Source: Semisulcospira habei (lineage: Eukaryota; Mollusca; Gastropoda; Semisulcospiridae). Taken from it: a stretch of 64,000 bases of DNA. How positions within the stretch are numbered: position 1 is the stretch's first letter; every line of letters begins with the position of its first letter. The stretch covers positions 22,724,485 to 22,788,484 of the forward strand of contig BTPG01000004.1 in the NCBI GenBank assembly GCA_036245525.1, read 5' to 3'. Shown in pieces: positions 46,301 through 64,000 of the stretch. The notes under the pieces were generated by a model that was not told where the DNA came from, ran no database searches, and worked only from the letters and a program-made list of their open reading frames with translations. The position numbers were made by a program, and so were the translations under genes.

Positions 46301-49300
46301 ACAACCAACATACACACACCCACTTCAATTTTATTGGGGAGTGAAAGTAATCGGCTCAGCCTGATACTGTAAACACAGCCGGCAAAAGACGGAGAACGCT
46401 GAACAGCACTGCCATCTTGCTACGATGAGACGAGATGGACTAAAACGGCTCGGATAAGTGTGCTAAGTTTTTTTGTTTTTTTTAACAACGCCAATAACAA
46501 AAACACTTACCCGGCTGTGCAGGCACAGATAGTTTCTGTGACACTGTACTTGCTGATGCTCAGTTCCATGTACAGTTTGTGTGGATTGGCGCGTTCTGGT
46601 AGATCTGCGACCAGTGATACACGGATGCAACTTGAACGGCATCACTGCCAGTTGTGTGATAAATACGAACAGCATCAATGAAACTTGACGCAAACTTGCT
46701 TTGCCTTGATCAGGGCCGTTTTTGACAAAGCTTTGTTTCCTTGCAGAAAATGTAGGCTTGTAGAATTCGCAACGCATTCAGTCAAATCACGCACGCTACC
46801 ATCCGCCATATTGTCCAAACGACAGGAAAGCTTGTGGGACCCAGCAACAATTATTAGGGGGCGTGGCTTGTGATGCACGCGCTCGGTGAGGTCTATTGGC
46901 CCAAAGGCCTTTTGCTCACTAGATGTGTCATGTGTTACAGGTGAAGATCAGATGCGGTTGAGGGGATTCGATAAGACCCCAGACGTCAAACTGGAGGTAC
47001 CAATAGGTAAGTCAATTAGCAAACACCAGAGTAGGTGTTTTCCAACTATTAGTATTATTTTCCGTGTTTACATCACATTTCATCTTGCAGTTGTTTCTCT
47101 TACTTTAACACATTGAGCTGTAAGGTAACTATTCTCAGTATATCAATTTAGGAGTATGATCAACCATATTAGTTCAAAGGTGGTGCCAGAATAGCTTGGT
47201 GCCTTTAGGCACCAAGCTGTTTTTGCACCACCCTTGAACTATCATGTTTAACACATCTGCAGTAGTTGTTCAGGTTTAATATGGAAGTATGTGAACTCAA
47301 GCCGTGTGTTTGTGCAAGTTTCTGCTTTGTGTATTTATACCTATAAAAAAGCACCTACTCTCTGTGATTGTCGGTGTGATAATTTATGGTTTTTGTCTAC
47401 TGTATTAAAAAAATATGGTAGACTTTGAAATGGGGCGCATTCCGGAGCATGCACATGATGTTTTGGGCATGCGGGGCAGAAATTCTGGCAAAGAAGTAAC
47501 AAGATAAAAATGACATGTCTAGCTACGCAAACCTTGCTAGAGAATGTCTTTTTGGTGCCAAAGCACCATGTGTGTGTATGTGACAGGGACTAGAACCTGC
47601 GTTTGAGGACAGAAAAGCTTGAATTTTTAGGATATTGTCCCTAAAAGAATTATCTTGAGATCTTTTTTTCGATTTTTTGATTAAGATGCAAATTGGCAAG
47701 AAAATGGCCATTTCACAAGAACTGGTTGCTTCACACTGGAGTCCATAATTTTTCTTATGTTTACTAGATATTTTGCATATTGCTAGATAAAAGGGAGATA
47801 TTGAATGAGTTCGTTAACCTGCATTGTACCTCTAGAACGTTTTGAGTGATAATTAAATATTTTTTGAAAAAATATATTTTCATGTTTTTAGGATTAATTT
47901 CACGAACTATATGGGTTAATCTTAAAGCAAATGAATATTTTTTATGAAAAAAACAATCTTCTCATTAATAATTGCATGATTTTTCGTATATGGTATTTAC
48001 ATAAGCCTACAGTTTGTCTCGTTTGTCGGGTACGATTACTCATTAGGTCAATTGTGACCTGTATGCCCTAGGTGTGAAAATCAGACAATGTTCTGCACCA
48101 CTTTTTGGAGTCATTTGTAAAACAGCTAACAGAACTTTAATTTTTCTTTTACAAAAAAAAGCTATCTTCTCATTAATACCCGCATGATATTTCATAAACA
48201 GTGTTTGCATAAGCCTCCTGTTTGTCCTGGCCCTGGGGTAGGATTAGGTCAAATTGTGATCTGTAAGCCCTAGGTGTGAAAATCAGCAAGAAAATTGCAA
48301 AGTTGATTCTCTGATACGTCGGATGTTAGTACTGTAATGGGTGACGTATAACATCGAGTTGTCACTATGAACACAGCGTCGTGGGACTAATGATGCCATG
48401 ACGTGAAGCTTGAAGTGACGTCATTTCGCTGCTCGGGCTATTATTCTTCTTCAGAATAGCTATGCTACACCAGACCATGGAGCTTACGAATGGCAGGAAT
48501 CGCCGTGTGTCTGTCTTTCAGTATTTCTGTGTGCTAGTGTGTGTGGATCAGAGGGTGGGTTAGAGTAGAAGGAGATGGATTCCTGTCGCTACACGAGCCC
48601 ACAGAGCATACTAATGGTGGGAAGCGCCATGTGTCCGTCTTTATTTGTGTGCGCCGACGTGTGTGTTGATCAGGGATTGGCTTAGAGAGGAGGGAAATGG
48701 ATCAGCATAATAAGCCTAAAAATGAACAACTCTGAATGTTCCTAAAAGATAAAGGCATCTGAGCTCCAAACAATATGGTAAACTTTGGGATGAAATCCTT
48801 ATCTTGTTATTCTTTAAAGTGCTGCACATTTTATTAGTTTAGATGTAGCAGACATATAATTTCACACAAGGGATCAGTAAGCTATCATTATTATTGTTTT
48901 GTTTTTGTTTGTTTGCAGCGATCAATAGGCAAGTGATAAACTGGATTGAGAGCAAGGCATCATTTGGCGATAGAGAGAGTCACAGAACCTACATGCACGA
49001 CCAGTTCTTGTGTTATACCAACAGGTATGATTTCCAGCTTAAGAACTTGGATGCCTGTAACTGCCAAGCAATTCTGGCACCAGCCTTGAGCTATCATGCC
49101 AACCAGTCTCATGAACTGTGGAGTATCTGGACACTAGGCTATTCTGGCACTACCCTTGAATGTCATAGTCGATTTGTCTGCGGAACTGTAGAGTAGTCTT
49201 CAGAGAACAACTCTCAAATGGGGAGAAAATCCCAATGAAGAAAGAATCGCTCTGGAAAAGACAACTACAACACAATATATTAATTATAGAATTATTATTA

Positions 49301-50415
49301 TTATTATTAAATTGTGTTGTATGCCTGTTTTGAAAAAGAATTCTAACTCTTTTTGAGAAAGACATACAAACATTTCCTCATTGTGCTACCTATCTTTTCT
49401 TTGGTGATCAAGATGCCAAGCGAGTTGGCATATTGATCATCACAGGAAAGATAAATAACACATTGTGTACATCATGTTGTTGTTGTTTTTTTTTTTTTTT
49501 TTTTTTTTTTGGGGGGGGGGGGGGTGGTGGTGGAGGGGGTCTATTTTGGAAAAGGATTTTATCTCGAAATGTTAATATTTTGTGTTGTAACTGTCTCTCA
49601 AAGTGTGTTTCTTTCTTCCTTGTGATTTTCTTTGTATTTTACACATATGGCAGTTGCCTTTTTTTATCTGGATTTCCAACACCTGGAATTTAGATCTTGG
49701 GGCTGAGCATGTCAAATGGGCTGCTTGTGTATGGAGGCTATTCCTAAATCAGGCTCATATAAAAAACAAACAAACAAAAACCAATTGGTTGTCCTCTTTA
49801 TATTGAAGAAAGACAGTGTGCGCTCCTTTACAGTTAGGACTATAGGGACCACGTTCTGGACAGCCCTGATCACTGCCACATGCGTCCTCTTAGCAGTCAT
49901 ACTGTTTATACTGATAATTACCTCTGACTCCCACGTGGGTTGTTAATTTTTTTTACTCAAGAGACTGCCATTGGCAAGAGGCATAGATTCTCATGAGCCC
50001 CCGCCTTTGCGAGGGCTCATGAGAATGTATGCCTCGTGATTGACCATACTCTTGTCTGCTCAAACTGTGGATGTCAACGAAACAACTCAGCAAAGAGGCA
50101 TATTATAATTCATATGACCCCTGCTGCTGCGGGGACATGAGAATACACCGTATACGCCTCTTACAGATGGAGTGTCCTGGCCTAATCTACTGAATGTATG
50201 AAGTTCGTACAGTTTAACCTCTTTCGTACTGCCAGTTATAGAGCTGGATTCGCTGGAGTAGGTAAATGGCACACTTTATTGTTTGCAGGTTTGGTCCGGG
50301 GCTGGTGATCTACTGGTTTGGTTTCATTGATGAACTAGACACTCACGGTGATGATGGCATCATACTTAGCGACCACATTCCTGCAGAATTCACAACTATG
50401 GACCTCAGCTTATGA
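7087..50415 (+). CDS. CDIN1: CDIN1 (C15orf41) orthologue, nine spliced exons, N-terminus missing
   Basis: The exons at 7087-7151, 7889-7946, 22247-22325, 29395-29495, 29974-30023, 31833-31900, 46941-47006, 48919-49024 and 50289-50415 total 720 nt. They join in one frame with every split codon closing, giving 239 residues plus stop. The protein matches vertebrate CDIN1 along its length, for example KRTH near the start, '[11 protein letters not shown]', 'YGPIVDSIK', 'GFDKTPD', '[10 protein letters not shown]', 'YMHDQF' and '[13 protein letters not shown]'. CDIN1 is a PD-(D/E)XK-type nuclease that binds codanin-1; the human gene is mutated in congenital dyserythropoietic anaemia type I. The Asp of TPD and the E-x-K of IESKA fit that active-site pattern and are intact. 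Human CDIN1 has 281 residues, so about 48 N-terminal residues lie in exons not found here. Introns reach 15 kb and are mostly mobile elements, yet the exons carry no stop or frameshift, so the gene looks functional. Confidence 0.93.
7175..7241. repeat. Imperfect hairpin repeat (family F)
   Basis: 'gtgtatgcagccaccagtac' is followed after a short loop by its imperfect reverse complement 'gtacctgtgggtgcatgcac'. Relatives are at 29742-29821 and, decayed, at 31632-31712. It sits about 24 bp after a CDIN1 donor. Confidence 0.65.
7334..7415. repeat. Hairpin repeat, TAGTTCAAGGG family
   Basis: Left arm 'caagggtagtgccagattag' and right arm 'ctagtctggcgctacccttc' are inverted copies around a 'ccatccgg' loop, flanked by 'catgata' and 'tatcgtg'. 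Same family as 47170-47243 and 52186-52257. Confidence 0.75.
7618..7688. repeat. Degenerate hairpin, TAGTTCAAGGG family
   Basis: Begins 'tagttcaagggtggtgtcag' and ends 'gatgcttgaacta'. The arms pair imperfectly, with loss of homology on the right arm. Confidence 0.6.
7889..7946 (+). CDS. CDIN1: CDIN1 exon
   Basis: Acceptor 'ccctgtag' and donor 'gtaaat' bound 58 nt. With the two bases of the previous exon it makes Gln, then [19 protein letters not shown], ending on a codon boundary. MANK aligns with human 'LANEVDY', whose next residues are in the exon at 22247. Confidence 0.85.
8131..8385. mobile_element. pogo/Tigger-like terminal fragment
   Basis: A TA dinucleotide is followed by 'CAGTAGAACCTCTTTAATGG' and repeated 'acggtcac' motifs, the pattern of a Tc1/pogo-type terminal inverted repeat with TA target duplication. 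The mirror-image end is at about 21700-21946. No transposase frame is attached and the inner limit is arbitrary; an unrelated LTR begins at 8386. Confidence 0.5.
8386..9245 (-). mobile_element. LTR of the gypsy element (3' LTR)
   Basis: The 860-bp block is bounded by TGTTAC and GTAACA, a perfect 6-bp inverted terminus of the TG...CA type. Next to it on the internal side is a polypurine tract. On the minus strand a TATA-like 'GTATATAAGGAGG' around 8733-8745 could serve as the U3 promoter. The partner LTR was not found on the other side, where the element is cut at 11711. Boundaries rest on the TG/CA ends and the polypurine tract. Confidence 0.72.
9246..9264 (-). other. Polypurine tract of the gypsy element
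   Basis: On the minus strand 'CTTAAGAGGGGGGGGGGTAA' lies directly before the LTR start TGTTAC. This is the usual position and composition of the plus-strand primer of LTR retrotransposons. Confidence 0.75.
9454..11711 (-). pseudogene. Ty3/gypsy Gag-Pol fragment: zinc knuckle, protease, RT, RNase H; no integrase
   Basis: Read on the minus strand from 11711, one frame carries a CCHC knuckle ([15 protein letters not shown]-x2-C-x4-H-x4-C), an aspartic-protease active site (RDTGCS), and reverse transcriptase with '[16 protein letters not shown]', '[10 protein letters not shown]' and the YWDD catalytic box. RNase H follows with Asp (RTDASNEG), Glu (IEKECLAI) and Asp (QTDHQPL). The domain order and motifs are those of Ty3/gypsy elements. 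One in-frame TGA at 10198-10200 splits RT from RNase H without a shift. The frame ends at 9454, only about 200 bp from the LTR, so no integrase is encoded. Upstream the element is cut at 11711 by repeat X. It is a dead copy lying in a CDIN1 intron. Confidence 0.92.
11712..12265 (-). repeat. Repeat X, copy 1
   Basis: This block is repeated as an inverted copy at 38532-39076 with high identity over its length, including 'ggcgtggtctagtagtctgc' and 'ctcggtcacccttgtagcct' read in the minus direction here. Both copies start and stop at the same points (CTCAAACTGAG and AGTGATTAGG), so it is a discrete mobile unit. No coding frame or clear terminal inverted repeat is visible. It abuts the broken gypsy frame. 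Confidence 0.85.
12266..13926. other. Unclassified sequence, possibly LTR-like; no gene
   Basis: No recognisable protein. On the minus strand a purine tract 'GGGAAGGGTGA' at about 12993-13004 is followed by TGTGATTATCG, which could be the start of another LTR, but no matching end was found. The frames at 13145-13853 overlap on both strands and match no family I know. Confidence 0.35.
13927..16137 (+). mobile_element. DIRS-like element A, 5'-truncated
   Basis: From 13927 the sequence tracks DIRS-B (26873 onward): RNase H region ('[18 protein letters not shown]'), then tyrosine recombinase ('[16 protein letters not shown]', 'LTDFFLWLF', '[11 protein letters not shown]', '[20 protein letters not shown]'). 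About 252 bp present in B (27496-27747) are missing near 14541. The recombinase frame is broken and the H-x-x-R box reads HEVQ where B reads HEVR, so a catalytic Arg is lost. An internal complementary region (15783-15890) and a right terminus ending near 16137 are kept. It lies in LINE-A sequence and in the large CDIN1 intron. Confidence 0.88.
15783..15890. other. DIRS-A internal complementary region
   Basis: One half ('atcggtaatgtttttgagga') is the complement expected for the lost left terminus. The other half, from 'ttcatttttctctaaaagg' to 'cttaccgatgacatg', is the reverse complement of the right terminus at 16085-16137. This head-to-tail arrangement is the known DIRS template for making circular DNA. 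Confidence 0.78.
17204..19302. mobile_element. TTAA-flanked 2.1-kb DNA transposon, piggyBac-like
   Basis: The block starts TTAACTCTTCCGCGCACG and ends CGTGCGTCGAAGAGTTAA, so the ends are inverted (TTAACTCTTC-N2-CGCACG) and include TTAA on both sides. LINE-A RT frame stops at one TTAA and resumes at the other: with one TTAA kept, it reads VNDLNKFYA without a break. Seamless TTAA insertion is the hallmark of piggyBac transposases. No intact transposase is seen; a Cys-rich stretch near 17770-17850 ([17 protein letters not shown]) faintly recalls the piggyBac C-terminal zinc region but is too weak to count. Confidence 0.75.
19483..19510. repeat. Perfect 28-bp palindrome at insertion junction
   Basis: 'aagtcccttctatt' is followed by 'tatagaagggactt', with every base pairing if read as 13-bp arms and a 2-nt centre. 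Part of it (TATAGAAGGGACTT) recurs at 21053-21066 and forms the direct repeat around the 1.5-kb insertion. Confidence 0.8.
19691..20105 (+). mobile_element. tRNA-derived SINE with V-SINE-like tail
   Basis: The head has polymerase III boxes: A box 'GTGGCGCAGTGGTTAAGG' and B box 'GGTTCGAGACC'. The tail 'gcactttgagcc...aaaaagcgcctatataataa' followed by ATT repeats is the 3' end type shared with LINE-mobilised V-SINE/Deu-like SINEs. Its first ~120 bp match the SINE at 30306 closely while the rest differs. Confidence 0.82.
20560..20591. repeat. (CT)n microsatellite
   Basis: Run of about 13 CT units, flanked by a decayed member of the GGCATAGAT hairpin family ending 'gaggatctatgcctcttgg' near 20670. 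Confidence 0.9.
21700..21946. mobile_element. pogo/Tigger-like terminal fragment, inverse orientation
   Basis: Ends 'GAGGTTCTACTG' plus TA, the reverse complement of the start at 8131, with internal 'aaacggtcacc' motifs. The two ends are 13.8 kb apart with many elements between, so they are probably separate MITE copies. Inner limit is approximate. Confidence 0.45.
22062..22112 (+). repeat. SINE/LINE tail relic with (ATT)n
   Basis: 'aaggataagcgctatataag' followed by eight ATT units is the same 3' tail type as the SINE at 19691-20105. No head is visible. Confidence 0.6.
22247..22325 (+). CDS. CDIN1: CDIN1 exon (MLARIVLE segment)
   Basis: Acceptor 'cgtttcag' and donor 'gtaaat' bound 79 nt encoding [19 protein letters not shown] and then TGLSRDA plus one base. 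It aligns with human CDIN1 'VDYAPSLMARLILERFLQ'. The exon follows a 14.3-kb intron. Confidence 0.88.
22831..22903. repeat. Degenerate hairpin, TAGTTCAAGGG family
   Basis: Starts 'gatagttcaaggttagttcc' and ends 'gcactaccctagaactatta', arms still mostly complementary. Confidence 0.6.
23105..23177. repeat. Degenerate hairpin, GGCATAGAT family
   Basis: Left arm 'tggcatagatgctcatgagc' and right arm 'gctcacgtgaatctgtgcct' pair with a few mismatches. Confidence 0.65.
23600..26223 (+). pseudogene. DIRS-B gag-like and RT N-terminal region, broken
   Basis: GC-rich sequence with frames scattered over three phases and no long open frame. At 26000-26220 the start of RT can be followed ('[15 protein letters not shown]'), after which TAG (26222-26224) and TGA interrupt and the [11 protein letters not shown] motif continues in a different frame until about 26285. 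The gag part has no motif I recognise; its identity is inferred from position. Confidence 0.6.
26224..28101 (+). pseudogene. DIRS-B reverse transcriptase/RNase H polyprotein
   Basis: The 625-codon frame has RT motif A '[13 protein letters not shown]' (Asp 43 and 46), '[16 protein letters not shown]', and the catalytic box NYLDDLLL (YLDD at residues 108-111). RNase H follows with '[15 protein letters not shown]', '[13 protein letters not shown]' and '[13 protein letters not shown]', then the DIRS-specific region ([16 protein letters not shown]... [10 protein letters not shown]) often described as methyltransferase-like. The annotated start is not natural: the first ~20 codons are a shifted reading of the conserved PVIDLS motif, so the true protein started upstream. 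It belongs to the element and is not a host gene. It probably made cDNA from the element transcript. Confidence 0.9.
28109..28871 (+). pseudogene. DIRS-B tyrosine recombinase, frameshifted
   Basis: Fragments in several phases give '[19 protein letters not shown]', '[14 protein letters not shown]' and a C-terminal part with '[11 protein letters not shown]' (H-x-x-R), then '[16 protein letters not shown]' with the nucleophilic Tyr in RFYLRD. These are the catalytic elements of tyrosine recombinases, which DIRS elements use for integration in place of a DDE integrase. At least two frameshifts make it inactive, though the H-x-x-R and Tyr survive, unlike DIRS-A. Confidence 0.85.
29036..29142. other. 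DIRS-B internal complementary region
   Basis: First half ('tagtaatgccatcggtaatg', 'tattttgaggaaac') is the reverse complement of the left terminus at 23392-23435. Second half ('ctctaaaatgtattttttcg', 'aaaatacttaccgatggcat') is the reverse complement of the right terminus at 29330-29384. The two are joined head to tail as in DIRS-1. Confidence 0.85.
29395..29495 (+). CDS. CDIN1: CDIN1 exon (AREVLE segment)
   Basis: Acceptor 'tttttcacag' and donor 'gtaagg' bound 101 nt. Its first two bases complete the Gly codon opened by exon 22247-22325, then it reads [19 protein letters not shown] and on to LAREVLE, matching human '[26 protein letters not shown]'. DIRS-B ends about 10 bp upstream. Confidence 0.9.
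29742..29821. repeat. Hairpin repeat (family F)
   Basis: Arms 'aaccccccttgtgcatgcag' with 'ccaccagtactg' and 'cagtactagtgg' with 'ttgcatgtacaagggaggtt' pair around 'ttaacactatag'. Confidence 0.75.
29974..30023 (+). CDS. CDIN1: CDIN1 exon (YGPIVDSIK segment)
   Basis: Acceptor 'attttcag' and donor 'gtaaac' bound 50 nt encoding [16 protein letters not shown] plus two bases, matching human 'CIVNDCCYGPLVDCIK'. Confidence 0.9.
30050..31621 (+). mobile_element. CACGTG-type tandem-repeat element, copy 2
   Basis: Starts 'GGCTCAAGTGCAAAGC' and ends with 'CACGTGAGCC' and 'GGCTTTGCCATTCTTG', as copy 1 at 3207-4200. Internal monomers carry 'gagatacctgatggtaagac'. A 573-bp SINE (30306-30878) interrupts it. 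It begins 27 bp after a CDIN1 donor. Confidence 0.75.
30306..30878 (+). mobile_element. tRNA-headed SINE, full length with target duplication
   Basis: Flanked by the 12-bp direct repeat ATGTTTTCACAA (30294-30305 and 30879-30890). A box 'TGGCGCAGTGGTTAAGG' near 30316 and B box 'GGTTCGATACC' at 30360-30370 mark a tRNA-derived promoter. The body is about 500 bp, longer than most SINEs, and its 3' part shares nothing obvious with the SINE at 19691. Confidence 0.88.
31833..31900 (+). CDS. CDIN1: CDIN1 exon ([11 protein letters not shown] segment)
   Basis: Acceptor 'gatttcag' and donor 'gtaagt' bound 68 nt. It completes an Arg codon, then [19 protein letters not shown] and PFL plus one base, matching human '[22 protein letters not shown]'. 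A (TG)n tract starts immediately after the donor. Confidence 0.9.
31907..31985. repeat. (TG)n microsatellite beside CDIN1 donor
   Basis: About 35 TG units begin within 10 bp of the donor at 31901. A second run is at 32517-32568. Confidence 0.95.
32149..32948 (+). pseudogene. THAP-like domain gene fragment (ISL2EU-type)
   Basis: Frame from the ATG at 32149 reads [16 protein letters not shown], then '[11 protein letters not shown]', a stop, and '[14 protein letters not shown]', the layout of the atypical THAP zinc-binding domain found in transposon-derived invertebrate proteins (C-x4-C start, FPxP, conserved W-I-K-x-C, RPH). The conserved Trp of W-I-K is the TGA. A GTAAGT-like donor at 32346 and an acceptor ending at 32758 lead to an exon with '[14 protein letters not shown]', matching the 'PDPIPA' that follows in the family, and a donor at 32949. 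Family call is from memory. Confidence 0.6.
33014..33343 (-). pseudogene. YqaJ-type nuclease fragment
   Basis: Minus-strand frame with '[19 protein letters not shown]', '[20 protein letters not shown]' and, after a shift, '[17 protein letters not shown]'. These correspond to the E-V-K-C-P strand, the HxYYxQVQGQL helix and the (D)FVVxT...I..I..D segment of YqaJ/lambda-exonuclease-like nucleases. The catalytic Glu of E-x-K is Lys here. ISL2EU transposons combine a THAP domain and YqaJ, so with 32149-32948 this is likely one decayed, rearranged element, although the two parts are convergent. Confidence 0.65.
33641..33947 (+). mobile_element. SINE-like retroposon, copy 1 (307 bp)
   Basis: Flanked by the 12-bp duplication CCTCAAGTTTCT (33629-33640 and 33948-33959). 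Same sequence as 37049-37433 but starts ~55 bp later, at 'gttcccagggtcaccctggt', so it is 5'-truncated. Tail is (CCAA)n after 'gacgttaagcaatgtacaa'. Confidence 0.85.
34200..34551 (+). pseudogene. Possible 5' part of the Penelope-like element
   Basis: Sequence left of the LINE insertion; reads [20 protein letters not shown] in one frame, then breaks. It is continuous with 38257-38531 once LINE copy 1 is removed. Identity is inferred from that continuity and is weak. Confidence 0.35.
34567..38241 (-). mobile_element. LINE-B copy 1, full length, AP-endonuclease type
   Basis: Flanked by a 15-bp duplication TTTCTCACTCTTTAC (34552-34566 and 38242-38256). Minus-strand product: AP endonuclease ('[17 protein letters not shown]', '[14 protein letters not shown]', '[14 protein letters not shown]', '[11 protein letters not shown]'), '[19 protein letters not shown]', RT ('[17 protein letters not shown]', '[15 protein letters not shown]', '[16 protein letters not shown]', '[18 protein letters not shown]', '[13 protein letters not shown]') and a C-terminal '[13 protein letters not shown]'-type segment. 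This protein type is widespread as 'endonuclease-reverse transcriptase'; clade RTE- or I-like is not settled. It is dead: TGA in VDRETL and in EIGRRRW, a 7-nt deletion near 36300, and a SINE at 37049-37433. Tail is (TTAC)n at the left. Confidence 0.93.
37049..37433 (+). mobile_element. SINE-like retroposon, copy 2, nested in LINE-B copy 1
   Basis: Flanked by the 13-bp duplication CCCCTATTTTGGC (37036-37048 and 37434-37446), which lies in the endonuclease coding region. 385 bp, starting 'gccccacccgggtctgccct' and ending 'taagcaatgtacaatcaatc'. No clear polymerase III boxes, so it could also be the 3' end of an unseen LINE. Confidence 0.9.
38257..38531 (+). pseudogene. Penelope-like element, N-terminal fragment
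   Basis: The frame from 38309 encodes '[19 protein letters not shown]', '[13 protein letters not shown]' and '[15 protein letters not shown]', resembling the region of Penelope-like proteins just before the conserved I-I-K-P-A-D-K-G motif. The frame ends exactly where repeat X begins. It also carries a 35-bp inverted copy (38330-38364) of the element's 3' end. Confidence 0.55.
38532..39076 (+). repeat. Repeat X, copy 2
   Basis: 545-bp inverted copy of 11712-12265 with the same end points. It interrupts the Penelope N-terminal frame. Contains 'aataagtcatatgaccg', which recurs at 40422-40438 next to the resumed Penelope frame. Confidence 0.85.
39077..40420. other. Unclassified insertion-like sequence with hairpin relics
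   Basis: No gene. Degenerate members of the GGCATAGAT hairpin family are at 39107-39166, 39246-39310 and 40083-40125. A (TC)n microsatellite spans about 40338-40371. The stretch separates the two parts of the Penelope-like element. Confidence 0.5.
40421..42247 (+). pseudogene. Penelope-like element: RT and GIY-YIG-type endonuclease
   Basis: Fragments encode '[20 protein letters not shown]'-type sequence (here [20 protein letters not shown]), '[15 protein letters not shown]', '[18 protein letters not shown]', the catalytic RYIDDCLG, and '[13 protein letters not shown]', all typical of Penelope RT. The C-terminal part has '[15 protein letters not shown]', '[16 protein letters not shown]' and 'QVGRHFNEP', the GIY-YIG endonuclease of these elements; the usual Y-I-G-E-T reads Y-L-E-E-T, losing the Gly. 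Breaks: a frameshift in an A run near 40917, and TGA at 41309-41311 where the family usually has Arg. The 5' part is missing or displaced to 38257-38531. Confidence 0.9.
42261..45559 (+). mobile_element. LINE-B copy 2, full length
   Basis: Flanked by the 13-bp duplication GTTTTGTGCATGT (42248-42260 and 45560-45572). 3.3 kb, starting 'cctcgcgctgggaccatatg' and ending with (TAAG)n. Endonuclease, linker and RT as in copy 1, with '[13 protein letters not shown]' (FADD) and a C-terminal '[17 protein letters not shown]'. One frame (42540-44759) carries it except for TAG where copy 1 has the Gln of DRLQSAV (42996-42998) and TGA in DVRVRR (43305-43307). A +1 insertion near 44583 then moves RT to the frame 44593-45555. 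Copies 1 and 2 are in opposite orientation, about 4 kb apart. Confidence 0.93.
45573..45800 (+). other. Penelope-like element 3' end with hammerhead-like core
   Basis: Once LINE-B copy 2 is removed this continues the Penelope 3' region. It has CTGAAGA (45695-45701), a 5-bp hairpin GGATC-TTT-GATCC, and GAAAC (45716-45720), the core order CUGANGA-stem II-GAAA of hammerhead ribozymes known in Penelope-like elements. At 45742-45776 there is a perfect 35-bp inverted match to 38330-38364, and 'AAAGCGAAAATGA' occurs next to both. Confidence 0.6.
45801..46940. other. Intronic sequence with no supported gene
   Basis: Includes a (CA)n tract near 46282-46303. Frames on both strands at 46460-46880 overlap and match nothing known. 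Confidence 0.45.
46941..47006 (+). CDS. CDIN1: CDIN1 exon (nuclease motif TPD)
   Basis: Acceptor 'gtgttacag' and donor 'gtaagt' bound 66 nt encoding (G)[21 protein letters not shown], matching human '[22 protein letters not shown]'. The Asp of TPD is the likely first metal-binding acidic residue of the PD-(D/E)XK fold. Confidence 0.92.
47170..47243. repeat. Hairpin repeat, TAGTTCAAGGG family
   Basis: 'tagttcaaaggtggtgccag' with 'aatagcttggtgcc' pairs with 'ggcaccaagctgtt' and 'gcaccacccttgaacta' around a TTTA loop; a few mismatches. Confidence 0.85.
47395..48430. repeat. Repeat R, copy 2
   Basis: Shares blocks in the same order with 19511-20500: 'gaagtaacaagataaaaa', 'gtctagctacgcaaacctt', 'gagtccataatttttcttat', 'atgagttcgttaacctgcat'. 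No coding frame. End points are approximate. Confidence 0.55.
48919..49024 (+). CDS. CDIN1: CDIN1 exon (catalytic ESK)
   Basis: Acceptor 'gtttgcag' and donor 'gtatga' bound 106 nt encoding [20 protein letters not shown] followed by [15 protein letters not shown] plus two bases, matching human '[20 protein letters not shown]' and 'HDQFWSYWNRF'. E-x-K of IESKA is the catalytic pair of PD-(D/E)XK enzymes and is unchanged. Confidence 0.94.
49025..49185. repeat. Degenerate double hairpin, TAGTTCAAGGG family
   Basis: Starts at the CDIN1 donor. 'gcaattctggcaccagcctt' and, 80 bp later, 'aggctattctggcactaccc' are right-arm copies of the family, each with remnants of a left arm. Confidence 0.5.
49973..50038. 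repeat. Hairpin repeat, GGCATAGAT family
   Basis: Arms 'gaggcatagattctcatgag' plus CCCCCGC and GAGGG plus 'ctcatgagaatgtatgcctc' pair around TTTGC. The left flank 'actcaagagactgccattgg' is shared with the copy at 51271. Confidence 0.9.
50095..50167. repeat. Degenerate hairpin, GGCATAGAT family
   Basis: 'agaggcatattataattcat' with 'atgacccctgc' pairs loosely with 'gcggggacatgagaatacac' and 'tacgcctctta'. Confidence 0.65.
50289..50415 (+). CDS. CDIN1: CDIN1 last coding exon
   Basis: Acceptor 'gtttgcag' starts 127 nt that complete an Arg codon, then [20 protein letters not shown], '[21 protein letters not shown]' in two parts, and TGA. It matches the human C-terminus '[20 protein letters not shown]' and the following acidic/Ile-Leu stretch. 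Confidence 0.94.
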
Positions 50416-50775: not shown

Positions 50776-51270
50776 GTAAAGTTGTGTGTGTGTTATGTGC
50801 ATGCATGCGTGTGTGCAAGACATCAACCCCTGAAGTTGTAATTTCCACATTGTTCTTAACAAGACAACATGAACATGATAGTTCAGGGGTGGGCCCAGAA
50901 TACACTGTTCTGTTCAAGTGTGTCAGCACGAGGCCTGTTCAAGTTTTACACTACATTATTGTGAAGGTTAGCACACACAGTCATACATTTTCTTTCTGCA
51001 ATATTATCTTTTCACTACTTTACAATTTTGAAAAATTTACTGCCTGCAATTACATTTATTTTAATGTTCACCCCACATGCATTTTACATGCCGAGCAACC
51101 AGTGTCACTTTTTTTTAACCTAGATTTTGTCGGGCATAGATCAGTGTCACCACAGGCTTTGGGCAATAAAATAGAAGGGAAAAAAGCCATTGACATTGAG
51201 GAAAAAAATGTGAAAGTCGTTGTGTGCACCTCCACATGGGTTGTTAATTTTTCACTCAAGAGACTGCCAT

Positions 51271-51338
51271 TGGCAAGAGGCATAGATTCTCATGAGCCCC
51301 CGCCTCTGCGGGGGCTCATGAGAATGTATGCCTCTTGA
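51271..51338. repeat. Hairpin repeat, GGCATAGAT family
   Basis: Arms 'aagaggcatagattctcatg' with AGCCCCCGCC and GCGGGGGCT with 'catgagaatgtatgcctctt'. Flank 'gggttgttaatttttcactc' is shared with 49938, so a unit longer than the hairpin was copied. Confidence 0.9.
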
Positions 51339-51774
51339 TAGACCATTTACTCATGTTGGCTCAAAAGGAGTGCATCATATTGGCTGGAGTATACGACTGT
51401 TCACCCCTTTCCAAGACGTCGTTCAGTACTTGAGCGTGTTCTTGAAAGTTTTACAAGTTGTGCCGAAATACCTGTCAAAAAGCCTAAATCATGGTGAACG
51501 TGTCTTCAACTGGATTTTATAGCTCCTTATCGAAGCTACGATACATAGGACCATTGCCCTGTGAAGGCAAAAGACAGTTAATTACATGTTTGTGAAAAGC
51601 GAGATTTCTATTGCATTACGATGTAAATCTCGCTTTCCACAAAAAAATGGACTTGCTGTCTGTTCGCCTTACAGATTTCTTGATTCTAGCAATACGGGCA
51701 AAATTTTGATTGTTCTGTTCACTGGAAGAATAGTAGAATTTTCGTCAAAGCCTCTGTACAAGTCACGGAAGATA

Positions 51775-52185: not shown

Positions 52186-52257
52186 TAGTTCAAGGGTAGT
52201 GCCAGAATAGCTTGGCGCCTACAGGCGCCAAGCTATTCTGGCACCACCCTTGAACTA
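52186..52257. repeat. Near-perfect hairpin, TAGTTCAAGGG family
   Basis: TAGTTCAAGGGTAGTGCCAG and AATAGCTTGGCGCC pair with GGCGCCAAGCTATT and CTGGCACCACCCTTGAACTA around TACA, with one mismatch (T/A against CC region) over about 34 bp. It is the best copy of the family. Confidence 0.93.
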
Positions 52258-52353: not shown

Positions 52354-52616
52354 TTAACCTGTTCAATGCCGAGAAAATTTGAACACCACCCAACTGCAAG
52401 AGTATAGATCCTCATGAGGCCCCGCAGTTGCAGGGGCTCATGAGGATCTATGCCTCTTGCTGACACCACTTTGAATCCATGTTCCTGGGACATGCAGGTG
52501 TTTTGTTTGTTTGTTTTTTTGTTTTTTGTTGGGGGGGGTGGGGTGGAGGCGGTGGTGTCTTGAATTACAAAGATTGCAGAAACACAGTCTGCGTCAGCTG
52601 GCACTTAGCGGGTTAA
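52354..52616. mobile_element. TTAA-bounded miniature element with GGCATAGAT hairpin core
   Basis: Starts TTAACCTGTTCAATGCCGAG, ends 'gcacttagcgggttaa'. Core hairpin at 52397-52459. The flanking blocks 'aaaatttgaacaccacccaa' and 'cacagtctgcgtcagctggc' recur in inverse orientation at 55498-55717, so the whole 263-bp unit is mobile. A T/G-rich stretch near 52500-52555 is private to this copy. Confidence 0.78.
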
Positions 52617-55497: not shown

Positions 55498-55717
55498 TTA
55501 ACCCGTTCACCCGTTGCGCCAGCTGACGCAGACTGTGTTCCTGCGATCTTTGTTAATTCAACACAGTAAGATCTAGCCGTCCCTGGAACGTGGATTCAAA
55601 GTGGTGTCAGCAATAGGCATAGATCCTCATGAGCCCCCGCGAATGCGGGGGCTCATGAGGATCTATACCTCTTGCAGTTGGGTGGTGTTGAAATTTTCTC
55701 GGCACTGAAAGGGTTAA
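55498..55717. mobile_element. TTAA-bounded miniature element, inverse of 52354 copy
   Basis: Starts TTAACCCGTTCACCCGTTGC and ends 'cggcactgaaagggttaa'. Core hairpin 55611-55674: 'aggcatagatcctcatgagc', CCCCGC-GAAT-GCGGGG, 'gctcatgaggatctatacct'. It lies 33 bp past the TG array. Confidence 0.85.
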
Positions 55718-55937
55718 AGCACGCATGCATGTAGGCTCAATTAATTGTGACAAGTTTATCGCCGCTTGGTTGATCTAATCACTAGGATTGGCAGACAGAC
55801 AAATCGCGCTATACTCATCATAAAAAGGATTGCAATGAAGTGTGACTGCTAATGTAGTCTAAACCGTACTCTGTTAATTTTTGACCGAGACAACCGTTCA
55901 CTGCCGATAAAAAATGAAGACGATCCAGCGGCTAGAG

Positions 55938-55997
55938 ACGTAGATCCTCATGAGCCCCAGGACGTGCGGGGGCCTCAGTAGAATCTGTCTCTTGATG
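55938..55997. repeat. Degenerate hairpin, GGCATAGAT family
   Basis: 'gacgtagatcctcatgagcc' against 'gggggcctcagtagaatctg' with 'tctcttg'. The left flank 'ttcactgccgataaaaaatg' is shared with the element at 61057. Confidence 0.6.
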
Positions 55998-56115
55998 GTC
56001 CCGTTTTTTAATACATATTTCTTGAATGAGTGGGGTACTTAGGTGTTGAATTATTACAGATTTCAAAAACACAGACTGCTGCAAGAGGTCACGTACATTA
56101 GAAGGAATTGTATCT

Positions 56116-56195
56116 TTAACTCATTCGAGACGTGCCGCCTCCGGATACGCGGCTGAAGCCGCGTATCCGGAGGCGGCACGTCTCGAATGAGTTGT
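56116..56195. repeat. Perfect 36-bp-arm hairpin, TTAACTCATTC family
   Basis: Arms 56118-56153 and 56158-56193 are exact reverse complements around TGAA. The outer sequence is TTAACTCATTCGAGACGTGC and its complement. Right flank is TTGT in place of TTAA. Confidence 0.95.
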
Positions 56196-56782: not shown

Positions 56783-57236
56783 ACAGATCTATAAAAATGT
56801 GCGCAGGACATACAGTATTTCTTTAATGTGACGGTAAGTATATTTAAAAAAATGTAATACCCAAACTTTATTCGTAGGTACAAAAAGTATGTCCTTTGTA
56901 GCAGCAATAGAAAAAAAATAATTTAAAAAATGCGACATGACCATGAAAATAAAGCCAAGTATGAAAATAAACCATTCAGCTATTTCACATGCAGCGACAA
57001 CAGCAGAAGGTGGCTGCACCACGATAGCTCAAGAGTTGTGTTATACTGTTAAAACAGGGCGATCACTCCTTCGGCGTGACTCGTAGGGGTGATGTCCACT
57101 TTTTTTTTCTTAACAAGATGGGGCTGTGCCATCCAGATTATCAATGGTTGGATCAGCTTGTGCCACGGGCCTACATTTCCAAATTATGGAGTTGTCATGT
57201 GAAGGCCAATTACAGTTCAGAAGGTATAATGACCAT

Positions 57237-57304
57237 GATAGTTCAGGGGTGGTGCCAGAATAGCTTGGCGCCTACATCCGGCACCACCCTTGCACTATCA
57301 TGGT
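57237..57304. repeat. Hairpin relic, TAGTTCAAGGG family
   Basis: 'catgatagttcaggggtggt' with 'gccagaatagcttggcgcc' and then only the distal right arm 'ggcaccacccttgcactatc'; the inner right arm is deleted. Confidence 0.8.
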
Positions 57305-57333
57305 CGATCGACTCTATCTTTTCTCGTTGTCAG

Positions 57334-57489
57334 CGGTATGTACGGGCAGAATGAACTGCCCTGTCAACCCATATGCATGTACTCTGGGTATGTACGGGCA
57401 GAATGAACTGCCCTGTCAACCCATATGCATGTACTCTGGGTATGTATGGGCAGAATGAATTGCCCTGTCAACCCATATGCATGTACTCT
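57334..57489. repeat. Tandem repeat, three 52-bp units
   Basis: Unit starts 'ggtatgtacgggcagaatga' and ends 'cccatatgcatgtactctg'. The first two are identical, the third has two or three changes. Confidence 0.95.
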
Positions 57490-57748
57490 GGGATGTGTTA
57501 GTGCTTGATTAACTCGGCGCTTTATACCGAATTGATCAGGCACTTGTCTTCGGGTATCACGGTCGCTCTAAAGCTCCCACAGCTGGCACTACTTGGGAGT
57601 GAACTGAAAGAAACGCCGCAGGCAGAGCAATATGTAAAGTGATGATGAGACCTCTAAAACAAAACCATCTGTGGTTTTTACCAAAGATTGAAACAGGTTC
57701 TTTGGTTTGACCAAACAAAAACAAAAACAAAAATCATATTGGTGCTTT

Positions 57749-57868
57749 TTAACCTGTGACTGTCGCCAGCGCATTTTGTCGAGGTGATTCCTATGAGGTA
57801 GCGCTTTCCTGCAGGAATCACCTTGCCAAAACTGATGCGGCGCTACCCGGCGACAGCCAAAGGGTTAA
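57749..57868. mobile_element. TTAA-bounded palindromic element
   Basis: Starts TTAACCTGTGACTGTCGCC and ends GGCGACAGCCAAAGGGTTAA. Internal arms 'ggtgattcct' and 'aggaatcacc' also pair. Same family as 60132-60226 (both have GCGACAG/CTGTCG terminal words). Confidence 0.8.
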
Positions 57869-58045: not shown

Positions 58046-58122
58046 TACAATCGAGACCTGTCGCATACGGAAACGCGGCAAATTGCCGCGTATCCGTATG
58101 CCGCACGTCTCGAATGAGTTCA
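58046..58122. repeat. Hairpin, TTAACTCATTC family
   Basis: Left arm 'cgagacctgtcgcatacgga' decayed; right arm 'tgccgcacgtctcgaatgag' matches 56158-56193. Confidence 0.75.
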
Positions 58123-58571: not shown

Positions 58572-58742
58572 CAAATACGTTATTGGTAGCAGGGCCTTGC
58601 TGCACGGACCCTTGTAGGCCTTCGGGAGGTCAAAGAAACCATTGTACCCTCAGGCCTTCGGCCTTCGGGGTACAATGGTTTCTTTGACCACCATCAGGCC
58701 TACAAGTGTCCGTGTAGCAAACCCCTGCTACCAATAACTTAT
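58572..58742. repeat. Long hairpin, 171 bp
   Basis: Outer arms 'cgttattggtagcaggg' and 'cctgctaccaataact'; middle arms 'cttgtaggcc' and 'ggcctacaag'; inner arms 'ggtcaaagaaaccattgtac' and 'gtacaatggtttctttgacc' around 'cctcaggccttcggccttcg'. Small bulges only. Confidence 0.92.
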
Positions 58743-60131: not shown

Positions 60132-60226
60132 TTAACCCTTTAGCTGTCGGTAGCGGTTTTGTCGCGATGATTCCTAGAAGAATCACTGATCGCGACAAAT
60201 ACCGCTAACGACAGCCGAAGGGTTAT
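60132..60226. mobile_element. TTAA-started palindromic element
   Basis: TTAACCCTTTAGCTGTCGG ... CGACAGCCGAAGGGTTAT. Inner arms 'tttgtcgcgatgattcct' and 'agaatcactgatcgcgacaa'. The terminal word CCCTTT matches the classical piggyBac end. Confidence 0.82.
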
Positions 60227-60325
60227 CCCCTTAACTACTACTGACGATACCACTCGGCAGAAAAGACGCGTGGTTACGCGTCTTTTCCGCCGAGTGGTAT
60301 CGTCAGTAGCTGTCAAGGGGTTAAG
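60223..60325. mobile_element. Palindromic element with 33-bp near-perfect inner arms
   Basis: Starts TTATCCCCTTAACTACTACT and ends 'agctgtcaaggggttaa'. Inner arms CTACTGACGATACCACTCGG and its complement, continuing to GACGCG/CGCGTC, have one mismatch. It overlaps the previous element by the four bases TTAT. Confidence 0.88.
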
Positions 60326-60575
60326 GGTGAATAGGAGAGATCAATCTTGATGGGCGGATGAATGGATGGATGCATGCATTAATGAATGGATGGACGGGTG
60401 CTTCCTCGTACGCGAGGATCAGTCTAGAGAATGAAGAATGATGTCATCACCTGCATGCCCGTTGACACTACACATGAAAACGCCTTCAAGTTCCGCGTGA
60501 CCCAGGGCTCGTGGTGGCGCCAGTCATTTCGCTTCGTTTGTACAGTCATTCAGTCATACTAGATCTTTCGGTGCA

Positions 60576-60904
60576 TCATTTTCTCTTGGACGTGAGCGGT
60601 TTGTTCAGGTTCTTTTTGGGCTTTGACAAGAGACGACCGGCAGGGCTTGGCGATTTGCTTCCTCCTCGCTTCGTCTTCTTAGGCTTCTCCACCTCGGCCA
60701 CGTGTAGTCTGAAGTTGGGGAAAAGATCCGTGCTTCCCTCCAGCAAAGGCTTGTAGCTGTACTGCGGCGGAGACGGCGTGGAGCGGCTGTCAGCGGACAT
60801 GTCATCTGGCTGCAGGTCCTTCTGGACTAGGATATAGGTGGCATGCGAATCCAGGAAGTTAGTTGCGTATTCATTCTTGTGGATGTCCAGCTCCTTGATA
60901 AGAC
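60576..60904 (-). CDS. Terminal coding exon of an unrecognised minus-strand gene
   Basis: A strong acceptor (run of T, then GCTCACAG) opens a 109-codon frame read on the minus strand: 'LIKELDIHKNEYATNFLDSH', 'ATYILVQKDLQPDDMSADS', 'PPQYSYKPLLEGSTDLFPN', then a basic Lys/Ser/Pro tail with KPKKTKRGG and SKPKKNLNK, and stop. The previous exon must supply one base of the first codon. The Pro-rich linker and basic tail suggest a disordered, perhaps nucleic-acid- or cytoskeleton-binding C-terminus, but I cannot name the family. No upstream exon was found in the remaining 3 kb. Confidence 0.55.
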
Positions 60905-61056
60905 CTGTGAGCAAAAAAAAAAAAACCCCGGTAATGTTACAGGCAGCTCAAAGTATCTTCCACAGCTCGTGATGACACGAACATTTTAAGAGCTAATTAC
61001 TGATGTCTTCCCAAACTTGGTGAAAACGGAAGGTCGTGTCAATCCACGCTTTAAAC

Positions 61057-61236
61057 TTAACCCCTTCACTTCCCGATAAAAAGTAAGCACGATCCGACTG
61101 CAAGAGACATGGATCATCATGAGCCCCCGCATTTGCGGGGGGATCATGAGGATCTATGCCTCTTGCGTCAACGCTCTTCGGACTTCATACTGATTTCATG
61201 AACACAGCACGTGACTACTGGCAGTGAAGGGGTTAA
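61057..61236. mobile_element. TTAA-bounded miniature element with hairpin core
   Basis: TTAACCCCTTCACT at the left and AGTGAAGGGGTTAA at the right are exact 14-bp inverted repeats including TTAA. Core hairpin 61101-61165 of the GGCATAGAT family with 'gagcccccgc' and 'gcgggg'. 180 bp, non-coding. Confidence 0.92.
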
Positions 61237-61705
61237 ACGTGTCACTGGCCCATGGTCTTTCCAGTGACTCATCCGGCCCAGTTCTTCTCAGCTACCTCTG
61301 GAAGAGCCTCAGCTAACGGCGACAAAGTAAGGGGTATTTTCAATGGCCGGTCATTTCATACAAGATAAACGACTTCGACTTTGAAGCCTTCAGCTGTTCG
61401 CATTACATGCTCCAGAAGAAAAGTTAATTACTTCTTCTGCCCTATATCATCAACTCTGGAAAGAAACTGAGAGCGGCCTTTCAGTCGTGGGGCCACCGAC
61501 TGACAACTGAAATGGGCTGCTTGGACATCGCCCAAGAAAAGAACCTGGTGACTACAAATTGACCGAACCGGAGTATAGCAAGGTAAGACGGGCACACGCA
61601 CTTTCCAATCCCAACAACTGATATCGGCTAAATTTGACAAAAACGTACACCCCGCTGAGTCGCCTCCGTAGTCTGGAAGTATACATAGGGAAGATCTTTT
61701 ACCAG

Positions 61706-61769
61706 CAAGAGGTATAGATTCTCATGAGCCCCTGCGACTGCAGGGGCTCATGAGAATCTATGCCTCTTG
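61706..61769. repeat. Near-perfect hairpin, GGCATAGAT family
   Basis: 'caagaggtatagattctcat' with GAGCCCCTGC pairs with GCAGGGGCTC and 'atgagaatctatgcctcttg' around GACT; one mismatch. Confidence 0.93.
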
Positions 61770-62656
61770 CCAGACCGTATAACTGAACTCCTCGGCCGGC
61801 GGGACCGTTTATAGTGTGAGCCCACTCCCTCTCTCTGTATTTGAAGACTTGGCCGATAACCGTTCTGAGAATAGTTCCTGCTCCCCAAATACATTTTGAC
61901 AAGCCATGTTCAATTTATCACGACGATATTACTGCAGTGGGGATCAACTCAGTCTTTGTCTAGTTATCAAACGGGACTGGCTGACCTTTCGCAAGGTTTG
62001 CAGGGTGCAGACGGTGGAATGAAGTTTACTTGTGCAGCGTAAGTCCTCTGTCCGAAGGAAACCCCCCCCGCCCACTACTCAGTTGCAGGGGCTCATGAGA
62101 ATCTAGGCCTGTTGGGTCTTGAGGAGAATCCAGAACCGTAATGCTCATGAGAATCAAATGTTCTTGCTGCCAATAACAACTTGACAGGCTGAGGGTGACG
62201 TAAAACTGGTTTGAAATTCAATATGAGTACTTGTTGGATGGATCATATGATCAGCAGATCATCAGCTGCACTGTTTAGTTCAGCTCGCGCGTCAGTCCAT
62301 ATGCACCCCGCGTGTATGGGTCTTCATAGGAGCCTGATTGTTCAGCTCAATGCAGCTCAGTTCAGTTCCCTCAAGATAGCATAGTTTCTTGATATGGTAG
62401 ACGGAAAGTCCATTCACGGTCCACCCCATACCTCCGAAGAGAAGAACCCGAGACACGCGTAGAAAAGACAGTTACAACAATGTATCAATTGTGTTGTAAC
62501 AGGTTTTTTTTCCCTAAGCATGTTTCTTTCTTCGCTGGGTTCTTCTCTGCATTTTACACGCTTGGTCGTCGCCTCTTTGGTCTGAATTTCATTCCTCCGA
62601 AGACTTCCCAATACAGAGTTCCTTTCGATTTTGTACAAGCATTGGCCTGCTTTATT

Positions 62657-62889
62657 TTAACCCCGTGACTGTCAGTGATTACGCATTTCGCGTCTGCCGA
62701 AACCACTGCACCTTCATTCCCTTGAAGAGTGCAAATGAAGTGGGACCGGCAAACATTAACAAAAGAAAGAACATGGGACGAAAAAGAGACATACATCCTC
62801 ATGAGCTCCTGCAATTGCGGGTGCTCATGAGGGTCTATGTCTCTTGCAGCTGAGTATCGTTCGCCTTGCCCTGGCATTTAAGGAGTTAA
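62657..62889. mobile_element. TTAA-bounded miniature element with hairpin core
   Basis: Starts TTAACCCCGTGACTGTCAGT, ends 'ggcatttaaggagttaa'. Core hairpin 62782-62847: 'gagacatacatcctcatgag' with 'ctcatgagggtctatgtctc'. Confidence 0.72.
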
Positions 62890-63600
62890 ATCTACATCCT
62901 TTCAAATCTGACAGCGTTCGCTGCTTTTCTCCATCCCTCTGCTCGATCAGTTACGTTTAGCTGATTTTTACATCACTGGTGTGATACTTTCTGCCTATGC
63001 TGTGAGTACAACCTCAGTTGGAGGTAGTTACCGGGATTTAAGTTCACGAACATTTATTGTTTAGTCAGCCCGTCAATTTATCAGCTGTCGACCAAGGTCG
63101 AGGTGACATTTTGTCCCTCCGTCGGTTGTGTTGTGGAGACGGCTCTAGTTCTGTATCCAAGCACTGGCTAGTACGGGCACTCTGCCACTCAGAAGTAAAT
63201 ATGGAAGTCCTGCGAAACATAGAATAACATAAACTCAATTTCAGATAAATATTCGTCATCCGCAATCCCCCTACCGGCCCATCAGAGCCTCATCTAATTT
63301 CGAGTCAGGTAGTTAAATGCTTTAACTCATTCGAAACGTGCAGCATCTGAACACGCGGCTGAACCCGTTCAGTGCCATGCTAATATGTTAAAACAATTGC
63401 CTAGTACATATAACGCATTTTAGCCCATGTAACGCATTCTTTGCAATTCAGTCCAGACATGATAACCAATGACTCAAATAAGCTGATTACCGCGTTTTAC
63501 GACCGCAGAATATTATAATAACTCGAATGTGACGGGGTTTTTCCTGTCCAGGCGGCACTGATTTAACACTATTGAGGTACGTTTACGGCGGACGACTCCC

Positions 63601-63801
63601 AACAACGAACGAGAGCGAAATCATGGCGTGTAACCAGACGCATAGATAACACTCTTAACATCTCCAAGAAGCATAGATCCTATTGAGCCCACCGGGCTCA
63701 TGAGGATCTATGCCTCTTGGAGATGTTAGAAGTGTTGTCTATGCTGATGGCACGAGTTGATTATCAATTGCAATTTCGCTCTCGTTCGTTGTCTGTAGTC
63801 G
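63601..63801. repeat. 200-bp nested hairpin
   Basis: Outer arms 'caacgaacgagagcgaaat' and 'atttcgctctcgttcgttg' are exact complements. Middle arms include 'catagataacactc' against 'gtgttgtctatg'. Core 63657-63727 is a GGCATAGAT-family hairpin ('taacatctccaag' and 'cttggagatgtta'). Confidence 0.9.
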
Positions 63802-64000
63802 TTTGTTGCAAACGACACCTTACTGCTATTAGCCATTTGAGCGGGGCAGTTCAGGCCGACCCCATCCCAGGGCCCTTTTGCTCGCCGGGAATTCTGTTAA
63901 GTGAAATTTCATGTAACCACAATTATCAGGAAAGTCAGTTTTCAGGGTATGTAATTCAGAGGGGTAATATCTGCAGTACTTGACAGACGGGTGGCATTTA

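What the first reader, a model, noticed from the sequence alone, without database searches (positions are those of the whole stretch)
60132..61236. Several palindromic mini-elements bounded by TTAA with C-rich ends
Elements at 52354-52616, 55498-55717, 57749-57868, 60132-60226, 60223-60325, 61057-61236 and 62657-62889 begin with TTAA or near-TTAA followed by CC(C)NNT(T/G) and end with the complement. The 61057 element has an exact 14-bp inverted end, TTAACCCCTTCACT. TTAA targets and CCC-rich ends are established hallmarks of piggyBac transposons. Strongly folded interiors of 60-120 bp are unusual for that group, and the different interiors with one type of terminus suggest several hairpin cargoes mobilised by one enzyme.
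Basis: partly seen in the sequence, partly recalled or inferred. Interest (0 to 1): 0.78.

Follow-up and report, generated by a model that had tools for sequence, protein, structure and literature searches.

The report
Snail-like piggyBac-type mini-transposons with hairpins
These are short non-coding jumping DNA pieces that look like relics moved by a piggyBac-type enzyme, a known kind of element; the one unusual point is that the hairpin inside several of them also occurs elsewhere without those ends.

Summary
Shuffles give 0.23 pairs on average, at most 2 in 60. Exact TTAA stands at 12 of 13 distinct end sites; the 13th, TTAT, is shared by two back-to-back elements. The ends match published piggyBac ends, e.g. 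coral CMITE family VI, CCCTTTCACTGCCA. Best reading: old non-autonomous piggyBac-type MITEs of several families.

'Several hairpin cargoes, one enzyme' is only partly right. The ~66-bp hairpin P1 is a dispersed repeat of its own. Of 12 clear copies, four are in TTAA family A, one is in a different TTAA element (62657-62889), and seven have no paired TTAA/CCC ends. Their 45-bp flanks match family A in no comparison. Hairpin arms are barely more alike within a copy (84%) than between copies (82%).

Empty sites, genome-wide copies and a transposase could not be tested: the genome search did not complete 25 times. New member of a known kind; a conserved interior under different ends is already reported for coral CMITEs.

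The parts
52354..52616 (+). Family A TTAA element, 263 bp, carrying hairpin P1 (52393-52462)
   Evidence: Ends 12/13 and 12/13 of the motif; 91% identical to 55579-55717 over 139 bp
55498..55717 (-). Family A TTAA element, 220 bp, reverse orientation, hairpin P1 at 55608-55677
   Evidence: Ends 10/13 and 13/13; aligned with the 52354 element along its length
55880..56110 (+). Decayed family A relative without recognisable TTAA pair (left-end site reads ACAA); extent approximate; hairpin P1 at 55929-55997
   Evidence: 79% identical to 61062-61141; flanks match other family A copies
61057..61236 (+). Family A TTAA element, 180 bp, exact 14-bp inverted ends, hairpin P1 at 61098-61168
   Evidence: 80% identical to 52354-52460
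62657..62889 (+). TTAA element, 233 bp, carrying hairpin P1 (62780-62849) in otherwise unrelated sequence
   Evidence: Ends 12/13 and 12/13; its 45-bp hairpin flanks match no other copy
57749..57868 (+). Family B TTAA element, 120 bp, long inverted ends
   Evidence: related to 60132-60226 (score 38, best of 100 shuffles 22)
60132..60226 (+). Family B TTAA element, 95 bp; right site TTAT shared with the next element
60223..60324 (+). Family C TTAA element, 102 bp, near-complete palindrome (49-nt arms, 90%)
56117..56193 (.). Candidate family D, (TT)AACTCATTCGAGACGTGC palindrome; TTAA at left, ACAA at right; first three element bases are CTC, not CCC, so membership is uncertain. Relatives at 58048-58120 and 63320-63367
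   Evidence: 37-nt arms 100% complementary; copies 80-85% identical
61703..61772 (.). Hairpin P1 without paired TTAA/CCC ends (best-preserved of seven such copies; others 20610-20670, 23105-23174, 39098-39166, 49972-50041, 51271-51340, 63662-63722)

Best explanation
The TTAA-bounded elements are old, non-coding miniature elements (MITEs) that were inserted at TTAA by transposases of the piggyBac superfamily encoded elsewhere in the genome, which read the TTAA-CC(C/T)NTT..ctGNC ends. At least three sequence families (A, B, C), perhaps a fourth (D), and one further element (62657) are present. Shown: the ends, their excess over shuffles, the families, and the shared TTAW between two neighbours. 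Inferred: insertion at TTAA, the enzyme and its absence from the elements. The hairpin P1 is a separate ~66-bp palindromic repeat that sits in at least two otherwise unrelated TTAA elements and in other contexts; it was most likely acquired by TTAA elements (by insertion or recombination) and copied with them.
For: Seven distinct inverted end pairs against 0.23 per shuffle; of 20 places with at least 8 of 9 letters of the core CCCNTTNANTGNC, 9 are preceded by exact TTAA (background 0.4%; partly circular); ends equal to coral piggyBac-MITE family VI CCCTTTCACTGCCA and close to AmiPB4 CCCATTCCCTGCCACA; CCCTT as the most conserved end motif and TTAA in nearly all animal piggyBacs mined, molluscs included (passages); back-to-back B and C sharing one TTAT that a single change from TTAA would explain; P1 found in 12 clear copies, 5 in TTAA-type elements and 7 without paired ends; 11 of 264 flank comparisons beat all 200 shuffles, 7 within family A and 4 among 39098/49972/51271, none between A and the rest.
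Against: No empty site was seen, so TTAA as a duplicated target is not shown. No transposase was found: only 10 of 271 open stretches were scanned against Pfam and none matched one. The motif-free test finds only the 61057 element clearly. Family D begins CTC, outside the CCY rule. A nested insertion into a D loop at 63356-63364 has a clear left junction, but the right arm of D does not resume better than chance (score 56.2, shuffles mean 54.1, maximum 68.3).
Confidence: 0.85

Rival explanations
1. The elements belong to another superfamily that targets TTAA or TTA (Kolobok, Sola3 or PIF/Harbinger; target habits recalled, not looked up) and the CCC ends are coincidence.
For: TTAA alone does not decide between these groups (recalled); no transposase was found (10 ORFs).
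Against: Ends agree letter by letter with published piggyBac ends over up to 13 bases; CCY at 13 of 14 ends.
Confidence: 0.08
2. One enzyme mobilises TTAA shells and the P1 hairpin is a functional cargo or transposase-binding site of that system; copies without TTAA ends are remnants whose ends have decayed.
For: P1 sits in two unrelated TTAA elements; piggyBac-type transposases bind subterminal palindromes through their cysteine-rich domains (passages) and each P1 arm holds the palindrome CTCATGAG; coral CMITEs also keep their interior better than their ends.
Against: Well-preserved P1 copies (61703, 51271) have no paired TTAA/CCC motif around them (single motif hits within 320 bp only at 39026 near 39098, and at 63360 and 63951 on either side of 63662, 608 bp apart). 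P1 lies in the middle of family A rather than next to the ends.
Confidence: 0.25
3. TTAA and palindromes coincide by chance in a palindrome-rich, repeat-rich sequence.
For: The window holds several other palindromic repeats without TTAA ends; the motif test is partly circular.
Against: Shuffle controls; copies of families A and B share ends and interiors at separate places.
Confidence: 0.03

Closest known systems
CMITE, piggyBac-type MITEs of Acropora corals (PMC2872659; abstract, passages and part 1 of 2 of Results seen)
   Same: About 100-bp TTAA elements with CCC ends; family VI end CCCTTTCACTGCCA; interior better conserved between families than the ends; mutated target site ACAA reported; copies can adjoin.
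   Different: Here elements are 95-263 bp and the shared interior is a strong hairpin that also occurs with no paired TTAA/CCC ends; whether it is related in sequence to the CMITE interior was not tested (their alignment is a figure).
Autonomous animal piggyBac elements (PMC10813416, passages)
   Same: TTAA site, CCCTT/CCCAT end motifs, found in molluscs.
   Different: Those are 1.2-9.5 kb and code for a transposase of about 500 aa or more; these are under 270 bp and non-coding.
Made1 human palindromic MITE (PMC1784062; search listing only; further details recalled)
   Same: Short MITE that is nearly one palindrome and can form hairpin RNA.
   Different: mariner-type with TA target (recalled), not TTAA/CCC.
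Pokey-derived mPok MITEs of Daphnia (PMC4912750; search listing with start of abstract)
   Same: MITEs of a piggyBac-superfamily element with TTAA sites (superfamily recalled).
   Different: No hairpin module reported in what was seen.

Membership tests
piggyBac superfamily (non-autonomous, MITE) | TTAA at both ends | tested here: met
   12 of 13 distinct sites exact, 13th TTAT
piggyBac superfamily (non-autonomous, MITE) | Terminal inverted repeats starting CC(C/T) | tested here: met
   CCY at 13 of 14 ends of the seven elements; not met by candidate family D (CTC)
piggyBac superfamily (non-autonomous, MITE) | TTAA is a target site: one TTAA at empty sites, precise excision | not tested
   No orthologue, allele or further genome copy reachable; the genome search unanswered in 25 tries. 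One in-window candidate was not better than chance on its right side
piggyBac superfamily (non-autonomous, MITE) | Coding relative with the same ends and a piggyBac transposase in the genome | not tested
   Only 10 of 271 open stretches of the window scanned, no transposase matched; rest of genome out of reach
MITE | Short, non-coding, several copies with shared boundaries | tested here: met
   95-263 bp; families A and B have several copies with shared ends
Kolobok / Sola3 / PIF-Harbinger | Family-typical ends and transposase (end types recalled) | tested here: inconclusive
   CC(C/T) ends favour piggyBac; no transposase seen for any superfamily in the 10 ORFs scanned
P1 as a transposon of its own | Sharp boundaries with a target-site duplication | tested here: inconclusive
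   CAG on both sides in 3 of 9 independent loci, but mismatched left-right pairings give 2.1, so duplication and fixed sequence cannot be told apart

The most novel reading that the evidence does not exclude
P1 is a mobile palindromic module that moves between transposon shells: the same ~66-bp hairpin rides in at least two unrelated TTAA/piggyBac-type elements and in other, non-TTAA repeats, spreading by more than one enzyme, or by its own mechanism, because the hairpin itself helps copying or transposase binding. That would explain why some MITE groups, such as coral CMITEs, keep their interior better than their ends.
Probability: 0.3. Interest if true: 0.55.

Novelty: new member of a known kind. 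Interest (0 to 1): 0.3.

Why it matters
If confirmed genome-wide, the window gives a concrete sequence (P1) with which to ask why some MITE interiors are better conserved than their ends, a puzzle left open by the coral CMITE report. The TTAA elements themselves are an ordinary addition to the catalogue of piggyBac-type MITEs, apparently in a mollusc.

Tried and rejected
Concerted evolution or selection on the hairpin: rejected as unsupported. P1 arms are 84.4% alike within a copy and 81.7% between copies (14 copies); P2 84.5 against 81.2 (5 copies); B 87.1 against 80.0 and D 91.7 against 85.9 (2 copies each). The small excess, the fully paired D copy and 3 of 21 P1 pairs with double changes keep a weak version alive.

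Target duplication of P1: inconclusive. Empty site of an A-like element in a D loop: left junction clear, right side not above shuffles. A 14-mer inverted-repeat scan of hairpin flanks was too blunt: it recovered the TTAA ends of only one of the TTAA elements that carry P1; I relied on the motif scan instead. An 89-bp alignment of 51273-51357 with 52396-52483 runs past the hairpin, but flank tests of A against non-A copies gave none beating 200 shuffles.

Relatives elsewhere: exact-pattern scans of viral contigs and genome contigs gave 0 matches; these collections are viral and prokaryotic, so this says little. A protein search with an open frame through a family A element gave 7 candidates and none with E up to 10. 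Rfam at gathering score: 0. Literature searches: (several lists capped); nothing seen there describes hairpin P1, but its sequence was not itself a search term.

Full report
What is there. Exact TTAA stands at 12 of 14 ends; the two others are one shared tetranucleotide, TTAT at 60223-60226, where one element ends and the next begins. Element bases 1-3 are CCC at 11 of 14 ends, CCT at two and CTC at one. A search for motif pairs finds 8 (7 distinct) against 0.23 on average and at most 2 in 60 shuffles, all in the last 18 kb. This motif was shaped on the elements; without it, only 61057-61236 is clearly beyond chance.

Families. Alignments separate family A (52354-52616; 55498-55717, reversed; 61057-61236; and a decayed copy near 55880-56110), family B (57749-57868 and 60132-60226; alignment score 38 against a best of 22 in 100 shuffles) and family C (60223-60324). 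The element at 62657-62889 has good TTAA ends and carries the same hairpin as family A, but the sequence beside that hairpin matches no other copy. A palindrome at 56118-56193 and two relatives (58048-58120, 63320-63367) begin TTAACTC or near it; I keep them as a candidate family D.

The hairpin. Family A holds a hairpin of about 66 bp, CAAGAGGCATAGATCCTCATGAGCCCCCGC-NNNN-complement, here called P1. It is a dispersed repeat: 12 clear copies in the window, four in family A, one in 62657-62889 and seven elsewhere. A covariance model built from those 12 adds three weaker places with E below 0.001 (53122, 39238, 50088) and one, 58620, that looks like a different palindrome. Around the seven copies outside TTAA elements no paired TTAA/CCC motif was found; single motif hits lie near two of them. 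Of 264 comparisons of 45-bp flanks, 11 beat all 200 shuffles: seven within family A and four among the copies at 39098, 49972 and 51271; none links family A with the others. So P1 is a module found in at least two unrelated TTAA elements and in other contexts.

Age and forces. Arms of one P1 copy are 84% alike, arms of different copies 82%, close to what independent decay after insertion predicts. I see no strong sign that pairing is maintained, though three copies (49972, 51271, 61703) share a change on both arms. A CAG on both sides in 3 of 9 loci hints at a 3-bp target duplication, but mismatched pairings give 2.1.

What it most likely is. TTAA sites and CCY ends are the published marks of piggyBac elements: CCCTT is the most conserved end motif and TTAA the usual site in animal piggyBacs, molluscs included (PMC10813416, passages). 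Coral CMITEs, piggyBac-type MITEs, include ends identical to those here, keep their interior better than their ends, and have an empty allele with one TTAA (PMC2872659, abstract, passages and part of Results). I therefore file the elements as piggyBac-type MITEs, with target duplication and transposase untested. Transposases of this group bind subterminal palindromes (PMC11707139, passages), which offers one way a palindromic interior could help, but P1 without TTAA ends speaks against a role confined to this system.

Host. The best named relatives of a LINE reverse transcriptase in the window (43308-44756) are from the snails Batillaria attramentaria (70% identity) and Littorina saxatilis (62%), followed by other animals (only the 7,965 candidates sharing most words were scored). 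The window is therefore probably a gastropod, not proven.

Limits. The genome search did not answer in 25 tries, so copy number, empty sites and a transposase are untested. Only 10 of 271 open stretches were scanned against Pfam.

Noticed in passing
window 7338-7407, 7614-7687, 47170-47241, 52186-52257, 57231-57305; parts at 49063-49160 and 50869-50902: A second dispersed palindromic repeat (P2), about 72-85 bp, TAGTTCAAGGGTGGTGCCAGAATAGCTTGGCGCC and complement.
   Followed up: partly
window 7160-7240 and 29745-29820: A third palindrome with two copies, CTTGTGCATGCAGCCACCAGTACTGT and near-complement.
   Followed up: no
window 58575-58742: A 168-bp near-complete palindrome (75-nt arms, 88%), the strongest fold found in the 120-nt scan of the window.
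   Followed up: no
window 63580-63814: Hairpin P1 nested in a longer palindrome with further inverted arms (63580-63621 / 63773-63814) that do not look like TTAA/CCC ends.
   Followed up: partly
window 63320-63367: A candidate D arm runs straight into a piggyBac-like end, ACGCGGCTGAACCCGTTCAGTGCC, at the loop position of D, as if one MITE had inserted in another; the far side was not better than chance.
   Followed up: partly
window 50205-50235: TTTAACCTCTTTCGTACTGCCAG beside a weak P1 copy looks like a lone TTAA/CC end with an insertion.
   Followed up: no
window 57335-57496: Tandem array with a unit of about 52 bp, GTATGTACGGGCAGAATGAACTGCC..., about three copies.
   Followed up: no
window 60579-60947, minus strand: Open stretch with a sub-threshold Pfam match to PF15874 (20.5 bits, cut-off 27), possibly an exon of a host gene next to the elements.
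   Followed up: no
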